A stretch of DNA of 64,000 nucleotides from NCBI RefSeq assembly GCF_900116295.1, contig NZ_FPAF01000012.1, forward strand, positions 1 to 64,000, given 5' to 3'. The translations under genes were made by a program, and so were the position numbers. The notes beneath the pieces are model-generated. The model was not told the origin of the DNA. It did no database searches and saw only the letters and a list, made by a program, of their open reading frames with translations. Source of the DNA: Bacillus sp. 103mf. GTDB taxonomy: Bacteria > Bacillota > Bacilli > Bacillales > Bacillaceae_G. This document shows, one piece after another, positions 38,311-38,552 of the stretch (position 1 is the stretch's first letter; each line of letters opens with the position of its first letter).

Positions 38311-38552
38311 TGTGGATAAGTGAGGTGAAACTATGAAGTTACCTTGTTGTTTAGAACATGTGGAGTTAGCGCTAGATATCATTGTGGATGAATGTGAAGT
38401 AGCTCCAGTTATCCACAATGTGGATAACGAAGAAGATAAGAAAAAAACATGTGAATTTTGTCAAAATAAGGCGATATATGTTGTGTCGAACACAGATTCT
38501 CACACAATATGTGGATGATGCATGTGGATATGTGGATAACTTTTGTGGATAA
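38311..38552. other. DnaA-box cluster between htrC and rlmH
   Basis: Within 242 bp there are five perfect DnaA boxes: 38311-38319, 38409-38417 (inverted), 38419-38427, 38531-38539 and 38544-38552. Three one-mismatch boxes lie at 38383-38391, 38510-38518 and 38523-38531. The pair at 38523-38539 shares the 19-mer TGTGGATATGTGGATAACT with oriC (7697-7715). No DnaA-trio or long AT-rich stretch accompanies it, so it looks like a DnaA-binding or titration site rather than a second origin. It spans the small CxxH/CxxC gene. Confidence 0.88.
38333..38518 (+). CDS. small CxxH/CxxC protein
   Basis: A 61-residue protein with an N-terminal CCLEH segment (CxxH, Cys6/His9) and a CEFC knuckle (Cys40-Cys43), likely metal-binding. 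I recognise it as the 'CxxH/CxxC protein' family of the B. cereus group and relatives, of unknown function, always beside rlmH. GAGGTGAAACT precedes the ATG. Much of its sequence is made of DnaA boxes: the segment VIHNVDN is encoded by two inverted boxes and the stop codon lies in another, so DNA-level constraint may shape the protein. Confidence 0.75.
   Translation: MKLPCCLEHVELALDIIVDECEVAPVIHNVDNEEDKKKTCEFCQNKAIYVVSNTDSHTICG

What the first reader, a model, noticed from the sequence alone, without database searches (positions are those of the whole stretch)
38311..38552. Dense DnaA-box cluster 29 kb from oriC, spanning a small CxxH/CxxC gene
Five perfect and three one-mismatch DnaA boxes fall within 242 bp, a density like oriC itself. 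One tandem pair shares 19 bases with the oriC unwinding-side boxes (7697-7715). The boxes lie partly within the coding frame of a 61-residue protein and in the gap to rlmH. B. subtilis is known to have DnaA-box clusters outside oriC that limit initiation by binding DnaA; I do not know of one described at this locus in the B. cereus group. The likely role is DnaA titration or DnaA-dependent control of rlmH. The small protein's sequence may be partly constrained by the DNA sites, which raises the question of whether it is made at all.
Basis: partly seen in the sequence, partly recalled or inferred. Interest (0 to 1): 0.78.

Follow-up and report, generated by a model that had tools for sequence, protein, structure and literature searches.

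The report
Conserved DnaA-box cluster before rlmH
A dense cluster of binding sites for the replication-starter protein DnaA lies just before the rlmH gene and inside a tiny neighbouring gene; the same cluster is known in Bacillus subtilis, and related genomes suggest that the DNA sites are conserved in their own right and partly dictate the small protein's sequence.

Summary
In detail: five exact and three one-mismatch DnaA boxes in 38311-38552, the densest 250 bp of the window. The small ORF is yyzF. The locus is orthologous to a known B. subtilis DnaA-binding region, 'upstream of yydA, spanning yyzF', one of the eight strongest there (PMC4447404, passages). So it is not a new kind of thing.

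The comparative evidence is new. 76 of 80 related loci, mostly Bacillaceae, keep at least 5 boxes before rlmH. Single Listeria, Staphylococcus and Latilactobacillus records have 6-7; none of 27 more distant loci has 3. In YyzF the words LST and VDN/VDK are mostly translated DnaA boxes: 54 exact boxes in 78 coding cores against 3.3 expected for the same proteins. Boxes also occur where yyzF is lost: 16 box-bearing genomes have no yyzF anywhere. Near-invariant Cys/His residues with varying codons indicate that the protein is selected too. Against: 21 of 75 class-level loci have no box. Likely role: DnaA represses yyzF-rlmH and is buffered there. DnaA binding was not tested in this organism.

The parts
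38280..38306 (+). hairpin at the end of htrA followed by a T-rich stretch: terminator-like, immediately before the first DnaA box
   Evidence: 11-bp stem, -15.2 kcal/mol for 38277-38312; the scan reports a terminator-like hit here on the - strand only
38311..38319 (-). DnaA box 1 (exact), 5' leader of yyzF
38333..38518 (+). yyzF: 61-aa CxxH/CxxC protein, AGGTGA just upstream
   Evidence: PF14116 7.2e-20 and TIGR04129 8.5e-19
38383..38391 (-). DnaA box 2 (one mismatch, TCATCCACA) inside yyzF
38409..38417 (+). DnaA box 3 (exact) inside yyzF, in the codons of V-I-H-N
   Evidence: kept with at most one change in the 3 relatives aligned
38419..38427 (-). DnaA box 4 (exact) inside yyzF, in the codons of N-V-D-N; inverted pair with box 3
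   Evidence: kept in L002 and L004, lost in L001
38477..38505 (+). conserved non-DnaA element at the 3' end of yyzF (TAT..GTRG.[GA]AAC-N11-YAY type); possible rlmH promoter or operator
   Evidence: pattern match in the window, in 65 of 80 loci and nowhere else in them, but in only 7 of 75 class-sample loci; frozen codons
38510..38518 (-). DnaA box 5 (one mismatch, TCATCCACA) over the yyzF stop codon
38523..38531 (-). DnaA box 6 (one mismatch, ATATCCACA); overlaps box 7 by one base in a tandem with an 8-bp step, the same 19 bases as oriC 7697-7715
38531..38539 (-). DnaA box 7 (exact)
38544..38552 (-). DnaA box 8 (exact); boxes 5-8 start at steps of 13, 8 and 13 bp, a grid found whole or with one box missing or added in 48 of 81 loci
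38578..39057 (+). rlmH (23S rRNA pseudouridine-1915 N3-methyltransferase), GTG start, 25 bases after the last box
   Evidence: NF000985 4.8e-80; start read from the sequence

Best explanation
This is the counterpart of the B. subtilis yyzF-yydA DnaA-box cluster: a high-affinity DnaA-binding region outside oriC. DnaA is inferred to bind the eight boxes cooperatively, the last four on a 13/8/13-bp grid in the yyzF-rlmH gap, over what may be the rlmH promoter, and so to repress yyzF-rlmH transcription. The same bound DnaA, at a locus replicated soon after oriC, is a buffer that lowers free DnaA and restrains re-initiation. The cluster is selected at the DNA level and partly overprints the yyzF reading frame, whose protein is under its own selection. 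Shown here: the boxes, the orthologous location, conservation in near relatives, DNA-level selection inside the gene, separability from the protein. Taken from print for B. subtilis: DnaA binding, direct regulation of yyzF-yydABCD, early initiation when six clusters are deleted. Inferred: that the same happens in this organism.
For: Boxes far above chance. Same locus as B. subtilis peak 8: 7 sites, constants printed as 0.16 (ATP-DnaA) and 0.33 (ADP-DnaA), against 0.21/0.33 and 0.16/0.30 for the two oriC regions (units not in the passages seen). DnaA 'appears to directly repress' the yyzF-yydD operon and a review counts yyzF-yydABCD as directly regulated. Deleting six non-oriC clusters gives early initiation. 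76 of 80 loci have at least 5 boxes within 400 bp before rlmH; mean 3.05 exact against 0.009 per 400 bp in the rest of the same loci. Gap boxes lie on one strand in 223 of 231 cases (77 loci with yyzF), and 48 of 81 loci show four variants of one spacing grid. Synonymous recoding of 78 YyzF cores: 54 exact and 126 near-exact boxes observed against means 3.3 and 32.5, maxima 12 and 50 in 500 trials. Boxes without yyzF: L034, L039, L063, 9 of 20 yyzF-negative genomes, 17 of 29 class-sample loci without yyzF within 800 bp, 16 of those 17 having no YyzF match anywhere in the genome. In two whole genomes the rlmH locus is one of few places where exact boxes cluster; another lies by ywlB-ywlC, also a B. 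subtilis DnaA region.
Against: No binding or expression data for this organism; no genome is held for the window and none of its species group was among the best 80 relatives. 21 of 75 class-level loci have no box, and 15 of 46 with yyzF have fewer than 3; 10 of 20 yyzF-negative genomes have none. In two genomes with a gene inserted before rlmH (L017, G041/L214) the boxes stay on the yyzF side and none is near rlmH, against an rlmH-only role. No promoter stands out: the scan found 1 site against 2.3 by chance. Genome-wide the exact word is not rare: 49 against 44 for its reversed control in one genome, 93 against 51 in the other. The variant TTATCAACA (26 of 50 LST words) departs from TTATNCACA and may be weak. 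Related sequences are not independent, so the P values are overstated.
Confidence: 0.8

Rival explanations
1. Pure titration site: the cluster only buffers DnaA, and regulation of yyzF-rlmH is a by-product.
For: Box number is steady (mean 5.99, variance 1.56 in 80 loci, not corrected for kinship). Positions turn over: the LST box of most relatives is absent in the window, which has a pair in VIHNVDN instead. In L017 and G041 the cluster is kept apart from rlmH. Deleting six clusters gives early initiation in B. subtilis.
Against: A pure sink need not sit at one gene, yet clusters lie directly before rlmH in single Listeria, Staphylococcus and Latilactobacillus records with no yyzF annotated between, and in 3 genomes with rlmH 209-405 kb from dnaA, with 3, 5 and 2 boxes. 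In G082 and G042 boxes lie both by yyzF and by the displaced rlmH.
Confidence: 0.3
2. Pure transcriptional operator for yyzF-rlmH; titration negligible.
For: Boxes concentrate in the yyzF-rlmH gap (231 of 460 classified) on one strand with recurrent spacing, next to a conserved promoter-like element; DnaA-regulated operon in B. subtilis.
Against: Eight boxes are more than a simple repressor needs; boxes also lie in yyzF itself (140 of 460); L017 and G041 keep the cluster apart from rlmH.
Confidence: 0.2
3. A cryptic or ancestral second replication origin, or a copied piece of oriC.
For: 19 bases shared with the oriC unwinding-side tandem.
Against: oriC has a run of TAG/TAA trios next to the tandem (7675-7692); the cluster has none. 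Only 4 of 81 loci have any run of three or more such trios within 400 bp. The shared 19 bases are mostly the two boxes themselves.
Confidence: 0.02
4. By-product of coding: the protein sequence happens to spell box-like words in AT-rich DNA.
For: YyzF proteins do carry the words LST and VDN/VDK.
Against: Synonymous recoding gives 3.3 exact boxes where 54 are seen; the window gene alone has 2 exact, reached in 0.3% of recodings. Boxes remain where yyzF is gone.
Confidence: 0.01

Closest known systems
B. subtilis DnaA-binding region 'upstream of yydA, spanning yyzF' (peak 8; Smith and Grossman 2015, PMC4447404, passages seen)
   Same: Same gene pair, same arrangement (boxes over yyzF and before rlmH/yydA), similar number of sites (7 in B. 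subtilis, 8 here)
   Different: About 29 kb from oriC here; the B. subtilis peak at 4113012 on a 4.2-Mb chromosome is roughly 0.1 Mb away (inferred). No LST box here but a VIHNVDN pair. No binding data here.
The six DnaA-box clusters outside oriC of B. subtilis (Okumura 2012, seen only as cited in PMC5295017 and PMC13220808)
   Same: Cluster of boxes outside oriC; that the yydA region is one of the six is my inference (eight strong regions less two in oriC)
   Different: Effect on initiation not tested here
E. coli datA (as described in PMC5295017, passages seen)
   Same: A cluster of DnaA boxes outside oriC that restrains initiation
   Different: datA works with IHF and DnaA-ATP hydrolysis; nothing of that was looked for here
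YyzF family (PF14116 / TIGR04129 CxxH_BA5709)
   Same: The ORF is a clear member
   Different: The finding is about the DNA sites that overlap it

Membership tests
Bacillus DnaA-box cluster at yyzF-yydA (DBC) | Several DnaA boxes within a few hundred bp, far above chance | tested here: met
Bacillus DnaA-box cluster at yyzF-yydA (DBC) | Lies over yyzF and directly before rlmH/yydA | tested here: met
   B. subtilis arrangement
Bacillus DnaA-box cluster at yyzF-yydA (DBC) | Bound by DnaA with high affinity | not testable with these tools
   B. subtilis data only
Bacillus DnaA-box cluster at yyzF-yydA (DBC) | Removal, with the other clusters, advances initiation | not testable with these tools
   B. 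subtilis data only, as cited
Replication origin (basal unwinding system) | DnaA-trios next to the boxes | tested here: not met
   none at the cluster, present at oriC 7675-7692
YyzF (PF14116/TIGR04129) | Score over the curated cut-off | tested here: met
   71.2 bits against 27; 67.5 against 35
datA-like locus | IHF-dependent DnaA-ATP hydrolysis | not tested
   no IHF or HU site search was made

The most novel reading that the evidence does not exclude
An old DnaA-box cluster belongs to the rlmH locus across much of the class Bacilli, and yyzF is a reading frame that has come to share its DNA. The recurrent LST and VDN/VDK words of YyzF are then an imprint of DnaA sites, not of protein function, and the locus joins DnaA to at least one further input: the conserved GAAC element and, in some lineages, a WalR-like repeat next to the walRK-htrA operon.
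Probability: 0.5. Interest if true: 0.6.

Novelty: new member of a known kind. Interest (0 to 1): 0.45.

Why it matters
Replication-control sites outside oriC in Bacillus are known mainly from one species. Showing that one of them keeps its place and size over many genera, in and out of coding sequence, makes it testable which of its two proposed jobs (DnaA buffering or control of rlmH) natural selection keeps. It also warns that recurrent words in a protein family can come from DNA-level selection.

Tried and rejected
Secondary origin: rejected for lack of DnaA-trios. Chance: rejected. Coding by-product: rejected. Known RNA element in 38000-38800: no Rfam match up to E 1. A sigma-A promoter by consensus scan: nothing above chance. 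LexA box as the identity of the GAAC element: considered by eye from a recalled consensus, fits some genera only, not scored, not adopted. Rok- or IHF-dependent binding: not tested. Conservation inside the window's own species group: could not be tested; no genome of it came up. Okumura 2012 and Ishikawa 2007 were not held, so I know the former only as cited and the latter only by name; Washington 2017 only as cited in PMC8203912. Papers seen as passages by term: PMC4447404, PMC8203912, PMC5295017, PMC13220808; all others only as search listings, of which some were cut (20 of 242, 10 of 53).

Limits of the counts. The class sample is the 75 odd-numbered rows among the first 150 of the printed list (191 of 200 genomes had a match; the tail was not printed), so it leans to RlmH proteins near the model. 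Some of its genomes may repeat named loci (G049 and L046 share a contig length), and G016 and G061 are also among the 20 yyzF-negative ones. 'No yyzF' in the class sample means none within 800 bp before rlmH; of the 17 with at least 3 boxes, G082 has it 4.5 kb away and 16 have none in the genome; the other 12 were not searched whole. Of 21 yyzF-negative genomes one was not listed and was not examined. Only two genomes were scanned whole for the exact word. ORF starts are the first possible start, so N-terminal extensions enter the VD[NK] count and the zone counts; avoids this by starting at the first Cys column. Column numbers of YyzF are alignment columns. In the scripts 'rlmH start' is the start of the query match, up to about 9 bases off the true start.

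Full report
What is there. Eight DnaA boxes (five exact TTATCCACA, three with one mismatch) lie in 38311-38552. This is the densest stretch of the window; in 300 Markov simulations the same length never held more than 2 exact or 4 near-exact boxes. Box 1 follows a hairpin after htrA and precedes the AGGTGA of a 61-codon gene, 38333-38518. Box 2 and the inverted pair of boxes 3 and 4 lie inside that gene, box 5 covers its stop codon, and boxes 6 to 8 fill the gap to rlmH (GTG start at 38578). Boxes 5 to 8 start at steps of 13, 8 and 13 bp on one strand. dnaA (- strand, 7808-9151) and the oriC boxes are about 29 kb away.

The gene. The ORF scores 71.2 bits against PF14116 YyzF and 67.5 against TIGR04129 CxxH/CxxC. 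The word yyzF occurs in 4 papers of the library, of which the 2 on DnaA are relevant; neither passage seen gives it a function.

Known counterpart. In B. subtilis, DnaA bound eight regions most strongly in vitro; one is described as 'upstream of yydA, spanning yyzF', with 7 sites and constants printed as 0.16 (ATP-DnaA) and 0.33 (ADP-DnaA), like those of the oriC regions (0.21/0.33 and 0.16/0.30) (PMC4447404, passages). yydA is rlmH (recalled; consistent with the gene order here). A review lists yyzF-yydABCD among the directly DnaA-regulated genes (PMC8203912, passage). Two reviews report that deleting six clusters outside oriC causes early initiation (citing Okumura 2012, which was not held); one of them doubts a significant role for such clusters in B. 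subtilis. That yydA is one of the six is my inference.

Conservation. RlmH was used to fetch the best 80 named loci, mostly Bacillaceae, none titled as the window's own species group. 76 of 80 have at least 5 boxes (up to one mismatch) in the 400 bp before rlmH, and 64 of 80 at least 3 TTATNCACA; the rest of the same loci has 0.009 exact boxes per 400 bp against 3.05 here. The four below 5 are L016, L037 and L074 (4 each) and L017 (0). In L017 a gene lies between, and boxes remain beside yyzF. In an unnamed class-level sample of 75 loci, 48 have 3 or more boxes and 21 have none. Of the named extras, all from records deposited as plasmids, Listeria innocua has 7, Staphylococcus epidermidis 7 and Latilactobacillus curvatus 6, while Paenibacillus cellulosilyticus, Acetoanaerobium noterae and Clostridioides difficile have none. 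Of 27 further loci drawn from the phylum (the 30 best less three already seen), none has 3 or more and 2 have one. That those 27 lie mostly outside Bacilli is presumed from their scores, not told by the tool.

Protein or DNA? Two layers of selection can be told apart. In 50 YyzF proteins with the word LST, 47 spell TTATCMACA (21 TTATCCACA, 26 TTATCAACA), where background codon use in the same loci predicts about 4%; T is ACA in 56 of 56, and VD[NK] is GTGGATAA in 44 of 47. Recoding 78 YyzF cores with synonymous codons gives on average 3.3 exact and 32.5 near-exact boxes, at most 12 and 50 in 500 trials; the real genes have 54 and 126, and rlmH stretches of 150 bases have 0 and 6. For the window gene alone 2 exact boxes are reached in 0.3% of recodings. 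Yet the Cys and His columns are nearly invariant (76 to 78 of 78) with synonymous changes at each of them. Codons at Cys34, Pro58, Ala81 and Asn79 are used about as elsewhere, while Cys77 (P 0.03), His37 (P 0.004) and Cys74 (P 3e-6) lean to one codon. I conclude that the protein is selected, hence probably made, and that DnaA boxes are written over it. In the window the LST columns (38438-38446) read KKK and the VIHNVDN pair stands 11 to 29 bases upstream. The three relatives aligned keep box 3 with at most one change, and one of them (L001) has lost box 4.

Boxes without the protein. L034, L039 and L063 lack a recognisable yyzF but keep 3 to 4 exact boxes. In L034, L039, L096, L098 and L099 a TTATCCACA stands where the LST box would be, before the retained 3' element, in DNA that no longer codes for YyzF (read by eye). 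Among 20 yyzF-negative genomes of the order sample, 9 have at least 3 boxes and 10 have none. In the class sample, yyzF with boxes occurs 31 times, yyzF without 15, boxes without yyzF 17, neither 12 (boxes means 3 or more, yyzF means within 800 bp). Of the 17, one (G082) has yyzF 4.5 kb away and 16 have none in the genome. Boxes and protein are thus separable in both directions.

Which job? Against pure buffering: clusters sit before rlmH in genera with other neighbours, and 3 genomes with rlmH 209-405 kb from dnaA keep 2 to 5 boxes. Two genomes in which 2.8 and 4.5 kb separate yyzF from rlmH (G042, G082) have boxes on both sides; they share the gene next to rlmH and the box spacing there, so they count as one event. 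Against a pure rlmH operator: L017 and G041 keep their boxes on the yyzF side and none near rlmH, boxes extend into yyzF (140 of 460), and their number is steady (mean 5.99, variance 1.56, uncorrected for kinship). I therefore favour a double role.

Whole genomes. In G001 the exact word occurs 49 times (reversed control 44) and in G002 93 times (control 51), so it is not rare as such; what stands out is clustering at oriC, at the rlmH locus and at ywlB-ywlC.

Other elements. The 3' end of yyzF carries a non-DnaA element (TAT..GTRG.[GA]AAC-N11-YAY type): in the window at 38477-38505, in 65 of 80 loci and nowhere else in them, in 6 of 20 yyzF-negative loci, and in only 7 of 75 class-sample loci. 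In it alignment column 87 Asn is AAC in 68 of 69 and column 86 Gly is GGG in 43 of 45. Its spacing to a TACAAA-like word just before the gap boxes suggests the rlmH promoter (inference; the consensus scan of the window does not show it). A WalR-like repeat (consensus recalled) stands between the boxes and rlmH in 17 of 81 loci, against 4 in 815 kb elsewhere, and hardly ever with another spacer; the window is not among the 17.

Not an origin. oriC at 7675-7692 has TAG/TAA trios beside the shared 19-base tandem; the cluster has none.

Verdict. A real, conserved, functional-looking DnaA-box cluster, the orthologue of one known in B. subtilis. My searches listed no paper on its conservation outside B. 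subtilis or on DnaA boxes inside yyzF as a constraint on the protein; the library lacks the two primary papers asked for, so this may be known.

Noticed in passing
L035, L043, L050, L051 and 13 other loci, within 160 bp before rlmH: Tandem TGTWAH-N5-TGTWAH (WalR-like, consensus recalled) in 17 of 81 loci, 4 in 815 kb elsewhere; other spacers 0 or 1 locus. rlmH lies next to the walRK-htrA operon, so feedback by WalR on rlmH is possible. Absent from the window.
   Followed up: partly
window 38477-38505 and 3' end of yyzF in 65 of 80 loci: Codon-frozen element TATRTWGTRGSGAAC with a palindromic GGAAC..ATTCC core in some genera, kept in 6 of 20 yyzF-negative loci; promoter or operator unknown.
   Followed up: partly
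window 11912-11953: Three DnaA-type boxes before trmE, the likely counterpart of the B. subtilis trmE DnaA region; so four of the eight B. subtilis strong regions seem to have counterparts in this window.
   Followed up: no
L215 1555-1736 and L216 1379-1800: Another exact-box cluster away from oriC in the two whole genomes lies at ywlB-ywlC (genes named by eye), again a known B. subtilis DnaA region. One box (L215 1698-1706) falls in the V-D-N codons near the ywlC start, so boxes may be written over that protein too (read by hand).
   Followed up: partly
YyzF genes with the word LST (50 loci): TTATCAACA is as common as TTATCCACA at the LST site (26 against 21 of 50); it may be a favoured weaker DnaA site.
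   Followed up: no
L212, L213: Insertion between yyzF and rlmH with DnaA boxes on both sides of it; the two genomes share a gene of about 770 codons next to rlmH.
   Followed up: partly
L168, L169, L170, L172, L173: Five genomes of 1.8-2.2 Mb have rlmH only 3-4 kb from dnaA, with 2-4 boxes before it; streptococcus-like by size and order (inferred).
   Followed up: no
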